NCBI GenBank assembly: GCA_005888315.1
Contig: VAWH01000018.1
Span: 62,001 to 126,000, forward strand
Length of the DNA stretch: 64,000 bases
Reading direction: 5' to 3'
Source: Actinomycetota bacterium
Lineage (GTDB): Bacteria; Actinomycetota; Thermoleophilia; Gaiellales; Gaiellaceae
Position 1 is the first letter of the stretch, and every line of letters starts with the position of its first letter. The translations under genes and the position numbers were made by a program. Shown here piece by piece: positions 2-60,785 of this stretch. The notes beneath the pieces were generated by a model. That model made no database searches and was not told where the DNA came from. It was given only the letters and a program-made list of their open reading frames with translations.

Positions 2-682
2 GAGCAACTCGCCGATAACGGCGCCCGGGCGGACGCGATCCTCTTCGACCTCGGGGTCTCGTCGATGCAGATCGACCGTCCCGAGCGAGGCTTCTCATAT
101 GCCGCCGACGCGCCGCTCGACATGCGGATGGATCCCTCCGTGGACTACTCGGCCCGCGAAGTCGTCAACGAGGCCTCCGAGCGCGAGCTGACCCACATCT
201 TCCGGCAGTACGGCGAGGAGCGCTACGCGAAGCAGATCGCCCGCGCGATCGCGCGCCGGCGCCGCGAACGGCCCTTCGAACGGACGGGCGAGCTCGTCGA
301 GACGATCAAGACTGCGATTCCGGCGCCGGCCCGTTTCGGCGACGGCCATCCCGCGAAGCGGGTCTTCCAGGCGCTTCGGATCGCTGTCAACGATGAGCTC
401 ACCGCGCTCGAGGACGCCTTGCCCCCGGCGGTCGATCTCCTCAACCCGGGCGGGAGGCTGGCGGTGATCAGCTTCCACTCGCTCGAGGACCGGATCGTCA
501 AGCGCTTCCTCCGCGACCAGGAGCGGGGCTGCACCTGCCCGCCGGACTTTCCCATCTGCGTCTGTGGACAGGAGCCGGTGCTTCGTGCGACGCCGCGGCG
601 GGCGATCCGGCCGAGCTCTCGCGAGACCGCCGGCAATCCACGCGCCGCGTCGGCGCGCTTGAGGGCGGCGGTGAAGGTTTAG
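2..682 (+). CDS. rsmH: 16S rRNA (cytosine-1402-N4)-methyltransferase, 5' truncated by window edge
   Basis: RsmH (MraW) methylates N4 of C1402 in 16S rRNA with SAM and usually heads dcw clusters. The reading frame is open from base 2 and encodes FDLGVSSMQIDRPERGFS, a conserved RsmH block, followed by the SFHSLEDRIVK motif near the C-terminus. About 226 residues of the usual ~310 are present; the SAM-binding N-terminus lies outside the window. The C-terminus ending in RAAVKV looks natural. The stop codon TAG (680-682) is the first three bases of the palindromic repeat that follows. The next gene, ftsL, is separated by ~327 bp of repeat, whereas these two genes are usually nearly adjacent. Confidence 0.97.
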   Translation, partial: EQLADNGARADAILFDLGVSSMQIDRPERGFSYAADAPLDMRMDPSVDYSAREVVNEASERELTHIFRQYGEERYAKQIARAIARRRRERPFERTGELVETIKTAIPAPARFGDGHPAKRVFQALRIAVNDELTALEDALPPAVDLLNPGGRLAVISFHSLEDRIVKRFLRDQERGCTCPPDFPICVCGQEPVLRATPRRAIRPSSRETAGNPRAASARLRAAVKV

Positions 683-843
683 TGCCCCATCCAGCAATAC
701 ATGCCGGCTTCTGGCCCGCGATCACGCGGCGCCAGAGTCCACCCTCGCTCTTGCCAAGGCTGCCAGCCTTGGCCGCGAGCGAGTGCGGTCTCTGGCTTGG
801 TGCTCGCGACCCAGAAGCTCGGCGGCATTACTGGAAGGGGCAC
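680..843. repeat. Long imperfect palindrome, copy 1 of a 164-bp tandem repeat
   Basis: This unit recurs 164 bp downstream with only about four mismatches. It is itself a long inverted repeat centred between 762 and 763 and extending from 680 to 845. Paired arms include TAGTGCCCCATCCAG with CTGGAAGGGGCACTA at the ends, GCTTCTGG with CCAGAAGC, GCCAGAG with CTCTGGC, CTCGCTC with GAGCGAG, and GCCAAGGCTG with CAGCCTTGGC at the apex. It carries no ORF conserved between copies, since 164 is not a multiple of three. It resembles a MITE or REP-type element; no transposase is nearby. Its left tip provides the rsmH stop codon. Confidence 0.9.
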
Positions 844-1007
844 TAGTGGCCCATCCAGCAATACATGCCGGCTTCTGGCCCGCGATCACGCGGCGCCAGA
901 GTCCACCCTCGCTCTTGCCAAGGCTGCCAGCCTTGGCCGCGAGCGAGTGCGGCCTCTGGCTTGGTGCTCGCGACCCAGAAGCTCGGCGGCCTTACTGGAA
1001 GGGCTAC
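844..1007. repeat. Long imperfect palindrome, copy 2, abutting ftsL
   Basis: Second copy of the 164-bp unit, centred between 926 and 927, with inverted symmetry from about 845 to 1008. Differences from copy 1 are single bases near the ends and within the right arm. Its right end contains GGAAGGG (997-1003), which serves as the Shine-Dalgarno sequence of ftsL at a 6-nt spacing. The equivalent GGAAGGGG in copy 1 (834-840) is followed by a GTG at 846 that opens no useful frame. In RNA the two units could each fold into a ~75-bp hairpin. Confidence 0.9.
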
Positions 1008-26644: not shown

Positions 26645-26655
26645 TCTGCTCTTTA

Positions 26656-26722
26656 GGCGTTCGCTTGCGACGCCGACCTGGAGGGGGACCCGGCTTTGCC
26701 GGGGCGCCCGTCTAAGCCCGGG
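26656..26722. repeat. Dispersed double-hairpin repeat, copy 1
   Basis: A ~67-bp element with a GGCGTTCGC/GCGACGCC hairpin, a CCTGGAGGG spacer, a CCGGCTTTGCCGG hairpin and a GCGCCCGTCTAA.CCCGG end. It is about 80% identical to 56608-56671 and weakly similar to 35796-35853. It sits in the 201-bp gap 26645-26845 between the HAD gene and a cysteine-rich unknown, where no other gene is seen. Confidence 0.75.
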
Positions 26723-52274: not shown

Positions 52275-54014
52275 ATGAGCTGGCGCGACCTCGGAGCCGG
52301 CGAGGTCCGCAGCGACCACGTGGGCGAGCGCCTCACGCTCGCCGGCTGGGTTGCACGGCGCCGCGACCATGGCGGCCTGATCTTCGTCGACCTCCGCGAC
52401 CAGACGGGCATCTGCCAGCTGGTCGTCAACCCCGAGCGCTCTGCGGAGGCGGCAAAACAGGCGCACGGGATCAGGAATGAGTTCGTGCTTCACGCGCAAG
52501 GCGAGGTCGTCGCGCGCGCGGCCGAGGCAGTGAATCCGAACCTGCCGACCGGCGAAGTCGAGCTCCAGGTCGACACGCTACGTGTCCTCTCGAGCGCGCC
52601 GCCGCTGCCCTTCCAGCTCGACGAGGAAGGCGTCGACGAGACGCTCAGGCTCCGCTACCGCTGGCTCGACCTTCGCCGCGAGCGGATGCAGCGGAACATC
52701 CGCACGCGCGCGCGGGCCGTGGCGGCGATTCGCCGGGAGATGGAGGCGGCCGGCTTCGTCGACATCGAGACCCCGATCATGGGCAAGCCGACGCCCGAGG
52801 GAGCCCGCGACTTCCTCGTGCCGACAAGGCTGCAGCCGGGGCGCTTCTTCGCGCTGCCTCAGTCTCCTCAGATCTACAAGCAGTTGCTCGTGATCTCGGG
52901 CTTCGAGCGCTACTACCAGATCGCGCGCTGCTTTCGAGACGAGGACCTCCGCGCAGATCGGCTGCAGGAGCTGACCCAGCTCGACGTCGAGATGGCGTTC
53001 CCCGACCAGGAGTTCCTCTTCGAGCTCAGCGAGCGGACGATGCAGAGCGTCTGGCGCGACTGTCTCGGCATCGAGGTCGAGGCCGCGTTCCAGCGGCTGA
53101 CCTGGGATGAAGCCCAGGCGCGCTACGGCTCCGACAAACCGGATCTTCGCTTCGGCCTCGAGATCGAGGACGCGACCGAGCTGACGCGCGGGTCCGAGTT
53201 CGGCGTCTTCGCGAGCGCGCCGGCTGTGCGTTTTCTCCGCGTCCCGCAGGAGTTCTCACGTGCCGACCTCGAGCGGCTCGAAGGGATCGCCAAGGAGTGG
53301 GGGGCGAAGGGCCTCGCCTATCTCGTCTACGACGAGGAGGGCGAGGTCCGCTCGCCGATCGCGAAGTTCCTCTCGCAGGAGGAGCTCGACGGTTTTCGCT
53401 CGGAGCCTGCGACGACCGTGCTCTTCGCCGCCGACGAGCCGGCGATGGTCGCGCGGGTCCTCGGAGCGCTGCGACTCCACCTCGGGCGCGAGCTCGAGCT
53501 GATCGACCGCGAAGCGTGGCGGTTCCTCTGGGTAACCGATTTCCCGTTGCTCGAGTGGGACGAGGAGGAAAACCGGTGGAAGGCGGTGCATCATCCGTTC
53601 ACTCGGCCGAACGACGAGGGGATCGAGCTGCTCGACTCCGACCCCGGCGCCGCACGTGCCGTCGCCTACGACCTGGTCGTCAACGGGATCGAGATCGCCG
53701 GCGGCTCCTTCCGGATCCACGAGCCCGCGTTGCAGGCCCGGATCTTCGGCCTGCTCGACATCTCGCCCGAGGAGCAGCGAGCGAAGTTCGGCTTCCTGCT
53801 CGACGCCCTCGCGATGGGCGCGCCCCCGCACGGCGGCATCGCGTCGGGCATCGACCGGCTCGCGATGGCGCTCCTCGACGAGCCCTATATCCGCGACACG
53901 GTCGCCTTTCCGAAGAACCAGGCCGGCGTCGATCCGATGAGCGGGGCGCCGACGGAGGTTGCGCCGGAACAGCTCGCCGAGCTGGGCATCGCCGTGGTCG
54001 CCGAGGAGGACTAA
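52275..54014 (+). CDS. aspS: Aspartyl-tRNA synthetase
   Basis: A 579-residue class II synthetase of bacterial type. The N-terminal OB fold has GWVARRRDHGGLIFVDLRDQTG, RYRWLDLRRERMQRN follows, and motif 2 is YYQIARCFRDEDLRADRLQELTQLD. A GAD insertion domain and the C-terminal GIDRLAMALL motif 3 complete it. ATG at 52275 has no strong ribosome-binding site beyond the hairpins upstream. It precedes a group of envelope-type unknowns. Confidence 0.96.
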   Translation: MSWRDLGAGEVRSDHVGERLTLAGWVARRRDHGGLIFVDLRDQTGICQLVVNPERSAEAAKQAHGIRNEFVLHAQGEVVARAAEAVNPNLPTGEVELQVDTLRVLSSAPPLPFQLDEEGVDETLRLRYRWLDLRRERMQRNIRTRARAVAAIRREMEAAGFVDIETPIMGKPTPEGARDFLVPTRLQPGRFFALPQSPQIYKQLLVISGFERYYQIARCFRDEDLRADRLQELTQLDVEMAFPDQEFLFELSERTMQSVWRDCLGIEVEAAFQRLTWDEAQARYGSDKPDLRFGLEIEDATELTRGSEFGVFASAPAVRFLRVPQEFSRADLERLEGIAKEWGAKGLAYLVYDEEGEVRSPIAKFLSQEELDGFRSEPATTVLFAADEPAMVARVLGALRLHLGRELELIDREAWRFLWVTDFPLLEWDEEENRWKAVHHPFTRPNDEGIELLDSDPGAARAVAYDLVVNGIEIAGGSFRIHEPALQARIFGLLDISPEEQRAKFGFLLDALAMGAPPHGGIASGIDRLAMALLDEPYIRDTVAFPKNQAGVDPMSGAPTEVAPEQLAELGIAVVAEED

Positions 54015-56180: not shown

Positions 56181-56593
56181 GCCCGGCGCTGGCCCAGAGG
56201 GAAGTCGCTCTCGCCGGGGTCGCTCTGGCCGCGGCGGTTGTCGCACTCGCCGTCACCTCGTCACACGGGTCCAACCGAGGCGGCCACCTCAACCCGGTCT
56301 ACGTTCCCGGAGGCGGCTGGTACACAGCCCTGGCCGGCGCTCGACCAGTGCGTTACGGCACGCGGACGAACTGCGGCGTCCTGCTGCGGACGAAGACGCG
56401 CGGCGTCGTCGACTCGGTCCTGCCGTGCAACATCAAGCTCTTCGTCTCGTTCGGCCGCAGCCCGCGTATCCTCACGCAGGTGGTCGCGCGGCGCCCAGTC
56501 GTCCCTGGTCGACGCTTCGACGTGACGCCGGCCCTCGCGGAGGACCTCGGCATCCAGGGGATCCAGCGCATCAGGTGGGTCTACGCCCGGTGA
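56177..56593 (+). CDS. Secreted double-psi beta-barrel (RlpA-like) protein
   Basis: A 138-residue protein with one N-terminal hydrophobic helix (~9-28, signal anchor or signal peptide). The remainder fits a double-psi beta-barrel of the RlpA/expansin kind: GGGWYTALAG, RTNCGVLLRTKTRGV, LPCNIKLFVSFG, VARRPVVPGRRFDVTPALAEDLGI. RlpA is a septal lytic transglycosylase elsewhere, but catalytic residues are not settled here. TTG start overlaps the upstream stop (TTGA). Its stop codon lies within a 21-base direct repeat. Confidence 0.65.
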   Translation: MSPALAQREVALAGVALAAAVVALAVTSSHGSNRGGHLNPVYVPGGGWYTALAGARPVRYGTRTNCGVLLRTKTRGVVDSVLPCNIKLFVSFGRSPRILTQVVARRPVVPGRRFDVTPALAEDLGIQGIQRIRWVYAR

Positions 56594-56714
56594 GCTAAGC
56601 TCGGCGAGGCGTCGCTTGCGATGCCGCCTGGAGGGCGTGGCGGCTTTGCCGGCGCGCCCGTCTAATCCCGGTCGTTGGTCAAGCGGCGTCTCGCGCCCGG
56701 TGAGCTAAGCTCGG
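56584..56714. repeat. 21-bp direct repeats bracketing a double-hairpin element
   Basis: The same 21 bases, beginning CGCCCGGTGAGCTAAG and ending CTCGG, occur at 56584-56604 and 56694-56714, a period of 110 bp. Between them lies copy 2 of the double-hairpin element. The left copy includes the stop codon of the preceding gene. Each copy contains TAAGCT (56596-56601 and 56706-56711), a candidate -10. The pattern looks like insertion with a target-site duplication or a tandem duplication of the gene end. Confidence 0.8.
56608..56671. repeat. Dispersed double-hairpin repeat, copy 2
   Basis: Left hairpin GGCGTCGC (56608-56615) with GCGATGCC (56618-56625), then CCTGGAGGG, CGGCTTTGCCGG, and GCGCCCGTCTAATCCCGG. 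About 80% identical to 26656-26722. Flanked by 21-bp direct repeats and followed by a structured RNA candidate. Confidence 0.8.
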
Positions 56715-56717
56715 TTC

Positions 56718-56900
56718 AGTGCTCGACCCTGTGCGAGCTCTGCGTTCTCAAAGTAGAACCAACACCAAGTGAAAGGGAGCCCGCGTCCGGTTAGGGCATC
56801 GCCCGAGGCCGGCAAGGCACCCACCTGGCAGTGCCAGGTTCGCTACGGGCGCGGAGTTCCGGCAGGGTGGGGCACTTTGAGAAGTGCTCTCAACGCAAGC
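56718..56900 (+). ncRNA. Candidate structured non-coding RNA, family unknown
   Basis: A ~180-nt non-coding stretch folds well. TGCGTT (56741-56746) pairs with AACGCA (56892-56897), and TTCTCAAAGT (56745-56754) with ACTTTGAGAA (56874-56883). GGAGC+CCGCG (56776-56785) pairs with CGCGG+GTTCC (56850-56860, one bulged A). Two hairpins sit inside: CCGG/GGGC-GCCC/CCGG (56787-56812) and ACCTGGC/GCCAGGT (56823-56839). An A-rich internal loop (56755-56772) lies inside the closing stem. TAAGCT (56706-56711) is a plausible -10. The closing stem with an open central bubble recalls 6S RNA, but no family consensus is seen. Confidence 0.6.
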
Positions 56901-56971
56901 CGGGATTAGCATGCTCCTTGGGGCCGGGGCGGGGATGCCCCTGATCGCGTAGGGGCAGCTAGCCTGACCGT

Positions 56972-58213
56972 GTGATCGAGGTCGTTGGGGATTCCTCGCG
57001 CGACGGCGAGGTAGCGCTCGTTCGGCTGGCGGTCGAGGGCGACCGCATCGTCGACGCAGACACAGACGGGCTCGGGCGCCCGCTCCGTGGCCTTACCTTG
57101 CTCGAGGCGGCGGCGGTGCCGGGCGAGACGCTTGCCGCGGACGCCCTCGCTAACGCGCTCAGTCAGGTGTTTCGGGCTGAGCCTGATCCCGGCCGCGTCG
57201 CGGTGGCGATGAGCGGCGGTGTCGACAGCGCGGTTGCGCTTCTGCGCGGGGGCCCGCAGGCGGTCGGCGTCACGCTGCGGCTCTGGATCGATCCGGAGGC
57301 GCCGGACTCGGAGCGTGCCTGTTGCTCGCCGGAAGCCGTGATCGCCGCGCGCGAGACGTGCCACGCGCTCGGTCTCCCGCACGTGACGCTCGATCTGCGC
57401 GAGGAGTTTCGCCGGGCCGTCGTGGCCCCGTTCGTGCGCGGCTACGCCCGCGGCGAGACTCCGAATCCGTGCATTCGCTGCAACGGCAGCTTTCGCTTCG
57501 CGGAGCTCCTCGCGTTCGCGGAGCGTGCCGGAGCCTCGCGCCTCGCGACCGGGCACTACGCACGGATCGTCGAGCACCGCGGCCGGCGCCTGCTGGCCCG
57601 AGGCCACGATCCGGGGAAGGACCAGACGTACATGCTCGCCCGCCTCGACCCGCGCCTGCTCGACCGGATTTGGTTCCCGCTGGGCGAGCAGACCAAGGAG
57701 GAGACGCGGGCCGAGGCCGGCCGCGCCGGACTCGCAGCCGCGCGGCGTACGGAGAGCCAGGAGGCCTGTTTTCTCGGGGGCGGCGACTACCGTGACTTCC
57801 TGGGGCGCCACGGCGTCGAGCAGGCCGAGGGCGAGATCCTCGACGAGCAGGGCCGCCGGCTCGGCAGCCACGACGGCTTCTGGCGCTTTACGCCCGGCCA
57901 GCGCCGAGGGATCGGCGTTGCGGCGGGGAAGCCCCTGTACGTGCTGCGCACCGATTCCGGCGCGAACGCGGTCGTCGTCGGGCCCCGCGAGTCGCTTGCG
58001 GTCGAAACGATTTCCGCCCGTGGACGGTTGTACGTCCGGGTGAATCGCGCCGAGGTCAAATGGCGGTACCGGTCTCCCGCGGTCCCGGCCGCGGTGGAGG
58101 AGACCGAGCACGGGTTCCGGCTCTTGCTCGACGCGCCTGCGTACGGCGTGGCTGCGGGGCAGGCCGCCGTTCTCTACGAGGACGACGTGGTCGTCGGAGC
58201 GGGGGTGCTGTGA
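56972..58213 (+). CDS. mnmA: tRNA-specific 2-thiouridylase, with N-terminal NifU-like extension
   Basis: The 413-residue protein carries MnmA, which forms 2-thiouridine at U34 of tRNAs. The PP-loop is VAMSGGVDS (~75), catalytic cysteines lie in NPCIRCNG and SQEACFLGG, and GHYARI and the C-terminal beta domain are normal. Before it, ~68 residues (VALVRLAVEGDRIVDADTDG... LLEAAAVPGETLAADALANAL) look like a NifU N-terminal scaffold that has lost its cysteines. TAGCCT (56960-56965) lies 6 nt before GTG. A hairpin, GCCCC (56937-56941)/GGGGC (56952-56956), precedes it. Confidence 0.9.
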   Translation: MIEVVGDSSRDGEVALVRLAVEGDRIVDADTDGLGRPLRGLTLLEAAAVPGETLAADALANALSQVFRAEPDPGRVAVAMSGGVDSAVALLRGGPQAVGVTLRLWIDPEAPDSERACCSPEAVIAARETCHALGLPHVTLDLREEFRRAVVAPFVRGYARGETPNPCIRCNGSFRFAELLAFAERAGASRLATGHYARIVEHRGRRLLARGHDPGKDQTYMLARLDPRLLDRIWFPLGEQTKEETRAEAGRAGLAAARRTESQEACFLGGGDYRDFLGRHGVEQAEGEILDEQGRRLGSHDGFWRFTPGQRRGIGVAAGKPLYVLRTDSGANAVVVGPRESLAVETISARGRLYVRVNRAEVKWRYRSPAVPAAVEETEHGFRLLLDAPAYGVAAGQAAVLYEDDVVVGAGVL

Positions 58214-58587
58214 CATCGGACCGGATCCTGCTCACGATTCCTCGCGGCGAGGGCTTCGAGAATGTCGCGCAGCTCGTCCTCGCGGGCGTCGCGGCCCGGT
58301 TGAACCTCACCTATGAGGTGATGGACGATCTCGGCACGGCGCTGTCGACGCTGCTCGAGCGGCGCGGGGAGCAGGGCGAGCTGACGGTCGAGCTCGACGT
58401 CGGCGAAGACGTCGTCACGGCGACGCTCGGCCCGTTCGGCGACGCGCTCCGGCTCGAACTCGAGCGTCAGGACGGCGGTGTCGGCCTGCGCCGCGTGCTG
58501 GAGACGATGGTCGACGGTTTCGGCACCGTCGAGCGCGAGGGCGGCGAGTGGATCGAGCTCGAGAAGAGGGTCGAGAGCGCGCCTTGA
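58210..58587 (+). CDS. Anti-sigma/GHKL-like regulatory protein
   Basis: A 125-residue protein in the position of an anti-sigma factor gene. RILLTIPRGEGFENVAQLVLAGVAARLNLTYEVMDDLGTALSTLLERR and later strands fit the RsbW-type histidine-kinase-like ATPase fold. The usual N-box Asn and the Gly-rich ATP lid are not clear, so it may bind the sigma factor without kinase activity. GTG overlaps the mnmA stop and its own stop overlaps the sigma start (TTGA). Confidence 0.65.
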   Translation: MTSDRILLTIPRGEGFENVAQLVLAGVAARLNLTYEVMDDLGTALSTLLERRGEQGELTVELDVGEDVVTATLGPFGDALRLELERQDGGVGLRRVLETMVDGFGTVEREGGEWIELEKRVESAP

Positions 58588-59348
58588 CCGAGAAGAGCGA
58601 CAAAGCTCTCCTGCGCCGGTATCACCAAGACGGCGACCTCGCCGCGCGCGAGCAGCTGATCGAGCAGTACATGTCCCTCGTCCGCTCGCTCGCCCGCCGC
58701 TACTCCTATCGCGGCGAGCAGTTCGAGGACCTCGTCCAGATCGGCGCGATCGGCCTGATCAAGGCGATCGACCGGTTCGACCTCGACCGCGGGGTCGAGC
58801 TGACCACCTACGCGACGCCGAACATCATCGGCGAGATCAAGCGGCATTTCCGCGACCGCGGCTGGTCGGTGCGGGTGCCCCGTGGTCTGCAGGAGCTCAA
58901 CATCCAGCTCTCGCGGCTGCTCGAGGAGAAGACGGTCGAGCTGGGCCGCTCGCCCACGATCAGCGAGCTCGCCAAGGCCGCGGAAGTCTCGGACGAGGAG
59001 GTGCTCGAGGCGCTCGAGAGCGGCCGGGCCTACAGCTCGCTGTCGCTCTCGGCAGGTCCCGGCCAGGACGAGGACGGCGACCTCGACCCGCTCGAGTCGC
59101 TCGGGACGGAGGAGCACGAGTACGAGGTCTCCGAGGACCGGGCGATCCTCGCGCCCGGCTTCCGCGTCCTCGACGATCGCGAGCGGACGATTCTCCATCT
59201 CCGCTTCTTCAAGGGGCTGACGCAATCCCAGATCGCGCAGCAGGTCGGGATCTCGCAGATGCACGTGTCCCGGCTGATCCGCCGCTCGCTCGAGAAGATC
59301 CGCGAGGAGATCGCCGAGGACGAGGAAGCGGGCCGACCCCTGCGGTAG
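58584..59348 (+). CDS. SigF/SigB-type RNA polymerase sigma factor
   Basis: A 254-residue group 3 sigma factor. Region 2 is AREQLIEQYMSLVRSLARRYSYRGEQFEDLVQIGAIGLIKAIDRFD with LTTYATPNIIGEIKRHFRDRGW. Region 3 follows RVPRGLQEL, and region 4 is LDDRERTILHLRFFKGLTQSQIAQQVGISQMHVSRL. Such factors control general-stress or sporulation-like responses and are held by anti-sigma proteins. The preceding coupled gene supplies one. TTG start gives the TTGA overlap. Target promoters cannot be named from this window. Confidence 0.93.
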   Translation: MTEKSDKALLRRYHQDGDLAAREQLIEQYMSLVRSLARRYSYRGEQFEDLVQIGAIGLIKAIDRFDLDRGVELTTYATPNIIGEIKRHFRDRGWSVRVPRGLQELNIQLSRLLEEKTVELGRSPTISELAKAAEVSDEEVLEALESGRAYSSLSLSAGPGQDEDGDLDPLESLGTEEHEYEVSEDRAILAPGFRVLDDRERTILHLRFFKGLTQSQIAQQVGISQMHVSRLIRRSLEKIREEIAEDEEAGRPLR

Positions 59349-59369: not shown

Positions 59370-60785
59370 TTACTCCAGGCTCAGCTGGGCGCTGTCCGAG
59401 CTGAGCGACGAGAGATTGAACCTGCCGTCGCTGAAGGTGCACTGCATCTCGACCGTGTCGCCGAGCGCGAAGCCTGAGAGCTCGGTGCCGGGCGGCATCG
59501 CACAGTTGACCGGCTCCGGGTGACCATCGACTTGGATGCCGACACCGTCCGAGCGCTTCGACCCGAGCACGCCGGTCAGGTCGAACCACTCCGCGAGCCG
59601 ACCTTCCCCGTACTCGAGCGACGCGTTGGCGGACGTGAGGCCGGTGAGCACATAGTGGCCGAGGGGCTTCCTGTCGCACTCGATCTCGACGAGGTCGCCG
59701 ACCGCGAAGCCGCGCAGGTCCTGGCCGGCCTGCAGGGCGCAGGTCGCCTTTTCGTTCTCGTGCATCAGCGACGCCACTTCCGTCTGAGCCGTCACGGCGA
59801 CCGTGACGGAGACCGAGTCGAGCCCTGTGATCGATCCCTCGAGGTCGATTGATCCGTCGCCGCCGTCTGGGGGATCGCCCGCCTTCGGACGGAGCTTCAC
59901 CAGCACGAAGCGGCCGTCTGTGAAGTTGCAGCTCATCTCGACCGGTTGCCCGGCCGCGAAGCCGGAGAGATGGACCGAGGGCGGGACCGCGCAGCGCACC
60001 GGCTCGGGATGGCCCTCGACGGTCACGCTGACCGTTGTGGATGAGAGGGAGGCGACGACGCCGGTGACCGTGAAGTAGTTGTCGCCCATGTCAACGCCGT
60101 CGTCGCCACCCGTGCCGTCGTTGCTCGCGTCCTCGTTGTCGAGGCTGACGAGTGTGAAGCTGCCGTCCGGCTCCACCGTCGCGTGCAGCGAGACCTCGTC
60201 CCCCGGCGCGAGTTCGGGTAGATCGAAATCGTCGGGAACGGTGACCTTGACGAGGCCGCGGCCGTGCACCGCGAGGCTGAGAACGCCTTTCTCGGTCGAG
60301 AGGTAGATGCCCTCGAGCTCGAGTTCGTCGTCGTGGCCGATCGGCTTGACGTCGTCGCAGAAGAGCCGCGCCTTGCCGAAGCTGGCCGAGGCGTGGACGC
60401 GGTCGCCTGCGCGCAGCTTGGCCGCGGCACCTCTTCGCAGACTGAACGCGAAGACGCTTTTTCCTGCAGAGAGGTAGAGCTTCTGCCCGGCGCGCTTCAC
60501 GACCGTCGCTCGTACGCGGGCGTGCCTGAGGCGGCGGATCTGCTTCGTTCCGGTGGCCGCGAAGGTGCCGTCGGGCAGCTGGCGGGCCCGGAACGCGACG
60601 AGAGCGCCGATGCCGATCTTGCGAATCGCCTGCGGGGCTCGAACCGTCCGGACGGTCCCGTTCTCGGCGGCGGTCACGATCGCCTTCCGCTTTGCGTTCT
60701 TTGCGATCACGACGCCCTGGAAGGCGCCGGCGTTCGCGGCTGTCGGCAGAGCGAGCCCGACCAGAGCCACGAGCACTCGTTTCAT
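59370..60785 (-). CDS. Secreted protein with internal OB-like repeats
   Basis: A 471-residue exported protein with a signal peptide (MKRVLVALVGLALPTAANA). The mature part holds paired repeats of about 60 residues, each with two cysteines: VEGHPEPVRCAVPPSVHLSGFAAG...VEMSCNFTDGRF and VDGHPEPVNCAMPPGTELSGFALG...VEMQCTFSDGRF. A third, more diverged repeat lies between them (KATCALQAGQDLRGFAVG...VEIECDRKPLG). The style resembles DUF5666-type secreted proteins. AGGAGGA precedes the ATG. Function unknown. Confidence 0.72.
   Translation of the reverse strand: MKRVLVALVGLALPTAANAGAFQGVVIAKNAKRKAIVTAAENGTVRTVRAPQAIRKIGIGALVAFRARQLPDGTFAATGTKQIRRLRHARVRATVVKRAGQKLYLSAGKSVFAFSLRRGAAAKLRAGDRVHASASFGKARLFCDDVKPIGHDDELELEGIYLSTEKGVLSLAVHGRGLVKVTVPDDFDLPELAPGDEVSLHATVEPDGSFTLVSLDNEDASNDGTGGDDGVDMGDNYFTVTGVVASLSSTTVSVTVEGHPEPVRCAVPPSVHLSGFAAGQPVEMSCNFTDGRFVLVKLRPKAGDPPDGGDGSIDLEGSITGLDSVSVTVAVTAQTEVASLMHENEKATCALQAGQDLRGFAVGDLVEIECDRKPLGHYVLTGLTSANASLEYGEGRLAEWFDLTGVLGSKRSDGVGIQVDGHPEPVNCAMPPGTELSGFALGDTVEMQCTFSDGRFNLSSLSSDSAQLSLE

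What the first reader, a model, noticed from the sequence alone, without database searches (positions are those of the whole stretch)
56718..56900. Candidate new structured RNA upstream of mnmA
A ~180-nt gap has a 10-bp closing stem, a bulged 10-bp stem and two interior hairpins, with an A-rich open loop and a plausible -10 just upstream. Known RNAs (RNase P, tmRNA, SRP, common riboswitches) do not match by motif; a 6S-like role is possible but unproven.
Basis: partly seen in the sequence, partly recalled or inferred. Interest (0 to 1): 0.7.

Follow-up and report, generated by a model that had tools for sequence, protein, structure and literature searches.

The report
A 6S RNA in a Thermoleophilia-type bacterium
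The structured stretch before mnmA is not a new kind of RNA: it is this bacterium's copy of 6S RNA, a well-known small RNA that holds the main RNA polymerase by imitating an open promoter; the only notable point is that the bacterium belongs to Actinobacteria, a phylum that recent papers describe as lacking 6S RNA.

Summary
Window 56718-56877 (+), 160 nt, matches the Rfam 6S/SsrS model (RF00013) end to end (42.6 bits, E 1.8e-7). This is just under the curated cut-off of 46.4, so a default scan misses it. It is the genome's only RF00013 match. Orthologues in the genus and family score over the cut-off. Compensatory change is strong: 17 of 31 pairs vary on both sides and 95.8% of cells are paired; no shuffle of 500 reaches either. 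All 30 homologues carry a TAnnnT -10 element just upstream. The neighbourhood (aspS - 6S - mnmA - alaS) matches a Bacillota locus with a 91.9-bit 6S RNA, which a model built only from the actinobacterial sequences recovers. In some relatives the RNA is divergent to mnmA, so it is not an mnmA leader. Mechanism, inferred by homology: it sequesters sigma-holoenzyme RNA polymerase and is released by pRNA synthesis. Recent papers say Actinobacteria lack 6S RNA, yet RF00013 matches 142 of 397 genomes of the phylum. Ordinary, with a modest correction to the literature.

The parts
56718..56877 (+). 6S RNA (ssrS), about 160 nt
   Evidence: RF00013 full length 1-187, 42.6 bits, E 1.8e-7; only match in the genome; own covariance model R1 149.9 bits, next best in the genome 17.7 (the window sequence is one of the 30 that R1 was built from)
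56706..56711 (+). -10 promoter element TAAGCT
   Evidence: TAnnnT within 15 nt upstream of the RNA start in 30/30 homologues; background 1-6%
56720..56732 (+). closing stem, 5' side (pairs with 56862-56874)
   Evidence: 12 pairs, 7 with changes on both sides, 94.4% of cells paired
56862..56874 (+). closing stem, 3' side
56733..56774 (+). 5' strand of the central bubble; by homology with E. coli and B. subtilis 6S RNA, the likely template strand for pRNA
   Evidence: no conserved pairs in the consensus fold; pRNA template role inferred from known 6S RNAs (own knowledge)
56756..56760 (+). GAACC, can pair across the bubble with GGUUC 56837-56841
   Evidence: 30/30 sequences can form all five pairs, one pair with a compensatory A-U to G-C change; resembles the inner helix of the RF00013 model
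56775..56822 (+). apical (terminal) stem-loop arm
   Evidence: helices 2 and 3: 13 pairs, 9 with changes on both sides
56823..56839 (+). 3' central-bubble hairpin ACCUGG/CCAGGU, mutually exclusive with the GAACC:GGUUC pairing
   Evidence: 100% of cells paired, G-C to C-G swap in 9 of 30 at its top pair; the two folds differ by 1.5 kcal/mol
52275..54014 (+). aspS, upstream neighbour
   Evidence: Pfam class II tRNA synthetase (D, K, N), anticodon-binding and GAD domains
56972..58213 (+). mnmA, downstream neighbour
   Evidence: Pfam tRNA_Me_trans HUP, middle and C-terminal domains

Best explanation
It is the 6S RNA gene (ssrS) of an uncultured actinobacterium, probably of the Thermoleophilia, transcribed from its own -10 promoter between the aspS side and mnmA. 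The RNA folds into a long irregular hairpin with an open central bubble that imitates a melted promoter. By homology it binds the housekeeping-sigma RNA polymerase holoenzyme and holds it off promoters when nutrients are short. It is released when the polymerase uses the bubble as template for a short product RNA, which makes the bubble refold; the two conserved, mutually exclusive pairings (GAACC:GGUUC and the ACCUGG/CCAGGU hairpin) fit such a switch. Shown here: family match, fold, covariation, promoter element, synteny, single copy. Inferred: expression, polymerase binding, pRNA synthesis, release.
For: Full-length RF00013 match, unique in the genome. Orthologues are over the curated cut-off, as are 63 of 99 genomes in the class sample. 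Covariation exceeds all shuffles and slid controls. A model built only from these sequences recovers a Bacillota 6S RNA (74.6 bits) that RF00013 scores 91.9, in the order aspS - 6S - rarA - rrf2 - iscS - mnmA - alaS. B. subtilis 6S-1 RNA lies between aspS and yrvM (PMC11077062). A -10 element is found in 30/30 homologues.
Against: The window copy itself scores 3.8 bits below the curated cut-off. There is no expression or binding evidence. The RNA polymerase-binding RNAs so far shown in well-studied Actinobacteria are Ms1, which binds core enzyme, and CoRP (PMC9130861, PMC11077062), so binding to holoenzyme rather than core is not certain here.
Confidence: 0.95

Rival explanations
1. It is an Ms1-type RNA, the actinobacterial RNA that resembles 6S RNA in structure but binds core RNA polymerase without sigma.
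For: Same phylum; Ms1 also folds as a long hairpin with a central bubble (PMC9130861).
Against: Length is ~160 nt, not ~300. The neighbours are aspS/mnmA, not the HAD-hydrolase context of Ms1. It matches the 6S model full length and cross-matches Bacillota 6S RNA.
Confidence: 0.04
2. It is a cis-acting leader (riboswitch or attenuator) controlling mnmA.
For: It lies 95 nt upstream of the predicted mnmA start on the same strand in this window.
Against: In several relatives the RNA is on the strand opposite to mnmA (L057; L073 and L074). In others of the order no mnmA was found in the ~1.5 kb fetched on each side. Rfam identifies it as 6S.
Confidence: 0.005
3. Chance folding of a GC-rich spacer.
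For: GC content is about 65%, so stable folds are common.
Against: Energy z = -4.3, compensatory changes far above controls, conserved bubble sequence and promoter.
Confidence: 0.005

Closest known systems
6S RNA / SsrS, Rfam RF00013
   Same: Full-length model match, length, closing stem, central bubble with 3' hairpin, apical arm, aspS-mnmA-alaS neighbourhood as in Bacillota, own promoter.
   Different: Sequence is divergent enough to fall 3.8 bits under the curated cut-off; 160 nt against 187 model positions, with most of the shortening in the apical arm; host lies in a phylum described as lacking 6S RNA.
B. subtilis 6S-1 RNA (bsrA)
   Same: Same gene neighbourhood (downstream of aspS; mnmA and alaS nearby) and same architecture.
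   Different: The genes that follow bsrA in Bacillota (yrvM or rarA, rrf2/cymR, iscS) are not between the RNA and mnmA here; two unknown proteins lie between aspS and the RNA, and mnmA follows directly.
Ms1 RNA of mycobacteria and streptomycetes
   Same: Long hairpin with central bubble; RNA polymerase-binding RNA of Actinobacteria.
   Different: About 300 nt, different gene context, binds core enzyme without sigma.

Membership tests
6S RNA (RF00013) | Match to the family covariance model at the curated cut-off | tested here: inconclusive
   42.6 bits against 46.4 for the window copy; E 1.8e-7, full length; same-genus orthologues 48.8 and 48.1, over the cut-off
6S RNA (RF00013) | Closing stem, large open central bubble and apical arm, supported by covariation | tested here: met
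6S RNA (RF00013) | Length about 160-200 nt, independent transcription unit | tested here: met
   160 nt; -10 element in 30/30 homologues; transcription itself not observed
6S RNA (RF00013) | Homology to accepted 6S RNAs of other phyla | tested here: met
   Model R1 from this clade finds the Bacillota 6S RNA in L131, 74.6 bits, itself 91.9 bits to RF00013
6S RNA (RF00013) | Binds RNA polymerase holoenzyme with the primary sigma factor | not testable with these tools
   Needs immunoprecipitation or in vitro binding
6S RNA (RF00013) | Serves as template for pRNA | not testable with these tools
   Needs small-RNA sequencing or in vitro transcription
Ms1 RNA | About 300 nt, next to a HAD hydrolase gene | tested here: not met
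   160 nt; neighbours aspS side and mnmA; definition from PMC9130861
Ms1 RNA | Binds core polymerase, not the sigma holoenzyme | not testable with these tools
   Needs immunoprecipitation
mnmA leader / riboswitch | Consistently on the sense strand upstream of mnmA | tested here: not met
   Opposite strand in L057, L073, L074

The most novel reading that the evidence does not exclude
Actinomycetota is not a phylum without 6S RNA: 6S RNA is ancestral and kept in many deep-branching classes, including this one, and was replaced by Ms1 or CoRP in the well-studied lineages. These RNAs would then be a place to study the transition from holoenzyme-binding to core-binding RNAs.
Probability: 0.5. Interest if true: 0.45.

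Novelty: new member of a known kind. Interest (0 to 1): 0.22.

Why it matters
As an RNA it is ordinary. It matters mainly as a correction. Papers of 2022 and 2024 state that 6S RNA is widespread except in Actinobacteria, whereas the public Rfam model matches 142 of 397 sampled genomes of this phylum at E <= 0.001 (83 over the curated cut-off). The absence therefore holds for some lineages and not for the phylum. It also shows that the RF00013 cut-off misses real members in this family.

Tried and rejected
Default Rfam scan of the window found only two tRNAs; the 6S match appeared only with the permissive search. The other permissive matches (isrB, GRIK4, HOXA11, Six3os1 and others, E 0.24-9.8) were rejected as chance. 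My first homologue alignment, A1, used the wrong strand for the minus-strand loci and was discarded; A2 replaces it. The simple sigma-70 and terminator scan found nothing, because it asks for a -35 box and a T-run that this GC-rich promoter and gene end lack. Wehner 2014 and Barrick 2005 are not held, so I could not check whether they list 6S RNAs of this class. Paper searches pairing 6S RNA with Thermoleophilia, Rubrobacter, Coriobacteria or Solirubrobacter found nothing.

Full report
What is there. The stretch 56718-56900 is non-coding and folds far better than shuffled sequence (-91.6 kcal/mol, z = -4.27, 0 of 200 shuffles as stable). The RNA itself is shorter at the 3' end than reported, about 56718-56877.

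Identity. A scan of the window at Rfam's curated cut-offs gives only two tRNAs. Searching 56600-56980 without the cut-off gives RF00013, 6S/SsrS RNA, over the whole model (1-187), 42.6 bits, E 1.8e-7, against a cut-off of 46.4. In the whole genome this is the only RF00013 match. Ten of 61 relatives searched, including two of the same genus, score over the cut-off (46.9-52.9 bits). In 99 genomes of the class 76 match, 63 over the cut-off. In 397 genomes of the phylum 142 match at E <= 0.001, 83 over the cut-off, up to 102 bits.

Structure by comparison. Thirty homologues, oriented correctly, were aligned (A2; mean column identity 61%). The consensus fold has four helices and 31 pairs. Of the cells, 95.8% are standard pairs (85.2% when 3' letters are shuffled); 17 pairs and 82 cells have changes on both sides (shuffled means 10.9 and 21.9); no shuffle of 500 reaches the observed values, and sliding the partner by one to three columns collapses the pairing to 32-50%. 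Related sequences inflate the shuffle control, but the slid control and the number of separately varying pairs agree. Within the central region, GAACC (56756-56760) can pair with GGUUC (56837-56841) in 30 of 30 sequences with one compensatory pair, while a hairpin ACCUGG/CCAGGU (56823-56839) that uses part of the same bases is also formed by all 30. In this sequence the two folds differ by 1.5 kcal/mol. pRNA-induced refolding is how known 6S RNAs let go of the polymerase (PMC11077062), so the conserved alternative pairings fit that role; this step is inference.

Promoter and gene neighbourhood. All 30 homologues have TAnnnT within 15 nt upstream of the RNA start, against 1% of upstream stretches and 6% of shuffled ones; here it is TAAGCT, 56706-56711. 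The order here is aspS (52275-54014), proteins without Pfam match, the RNA, mnmA (56972-58213), a sigma factor (58548-59348), and an alaS-like gene in the ORF that starts at 60692 (the alaS name is from reading the translation). In a Bacillota locus (L131) the order is aspS, 6S RNA (91.9 bits), rarA, rrf2, iscS, mnmA, alaS (gene names from reading the translations). B. subtilis 6S-1 RNA lies between aspS and yrvM (PMC11077062). A covariance model built only from A2 finds the L131 6S RNA at 74.6 bits, E 2e-13, and all ten high-scoring phylum loci tested. In L057, L073 and L074 the RNA is on the strand opposite to mnmA, so it is not an mnmA leader.

Mechanism. By membership in the 6S family the RNA most likely binds the housekeeping sigma holoenzyme, represses promoters in slow or stationary growth, and is freed by pRNA synthesis. 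None of this was observed here. The rival is Ms1, which binds core enzyme, is ~300 nt and sits beside a HAD-hydrolase gene (PMC9130861); length, context and model match all speak against it.

Host. mnmA relatives at 67-87% identity come mostly from records named Actinobacteria/Actinomycetota bacterium and Thermoleophilia bacterium, so the window is from an uncultured Actinomycetota, probably Thermoleophilia.

Novelty. The RNA is a known kind. What is mildly noteworthy is the conflict with the statement that 6S RNA is widespread with one exception, the Actinobacteria (PMC9130861), and has not been identified there except for one Streptomyces candidate (PMC11077062). Searches show that this cannot hold for the phylum as a whole. 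Rfam's own model already picks these RNAs up, so the fact may be known to curators; the 2005 and 2014 surveys were not readable here.

Side observation. Just upstream of the 6S promoter, 56606-56671 is one copy of a dispersed repeat of ~66 bp, present in dozens of copies in each of four genomes of the genus, often in tandem at ~110 bp with a locus-specific spacer, folding into two hairpins with some compensatory changes, without any Rfam match.

Noticed in passing
window 56606-56671 (+), another copy at 26655-26721: A ~66-bp dispersed repeat (GAGGCGTCGCTTGCGATGCCG..GGCGGCTTTGCCGCC..CCGTCTAAACCCGG) with 40 or more matches in each of four genomes of the genus and a few in two other genera of the family. 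It forms two hairpins (6 of 22 pairs with changes on both sides) and has no Rfam match. Tandem arrays have a ~110-bp period in which the ~44-nt spacer is nearly the same within an array but differs between loci.
   Followed up: partly
window 56584-56604 and 56694-56714: A perfect 21-bp direct repeat flanks the repeat element. It contains the stop of the upstream ORF and the 6S -10 element, so the -10 is present twice, 110 bp apart. In relative L036 (G003) the insert is absent and the ORF stop overlaps the 6S -10, which looks like an insertion with a long flank duplication.
   Followed up: partly
window 680-1003: Two tandem copies of a 164-bp unit, 98% identical.
   Followed up: no
L039, L044, L049, L052, L053, downstream of the 6S RNA: GC-rich hairpins (GGGGGAGCC..GGCTCCCCC type) without a clear T-run follow the 6S RNA in several relatives and may act as its terminator.
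   Followed up: no
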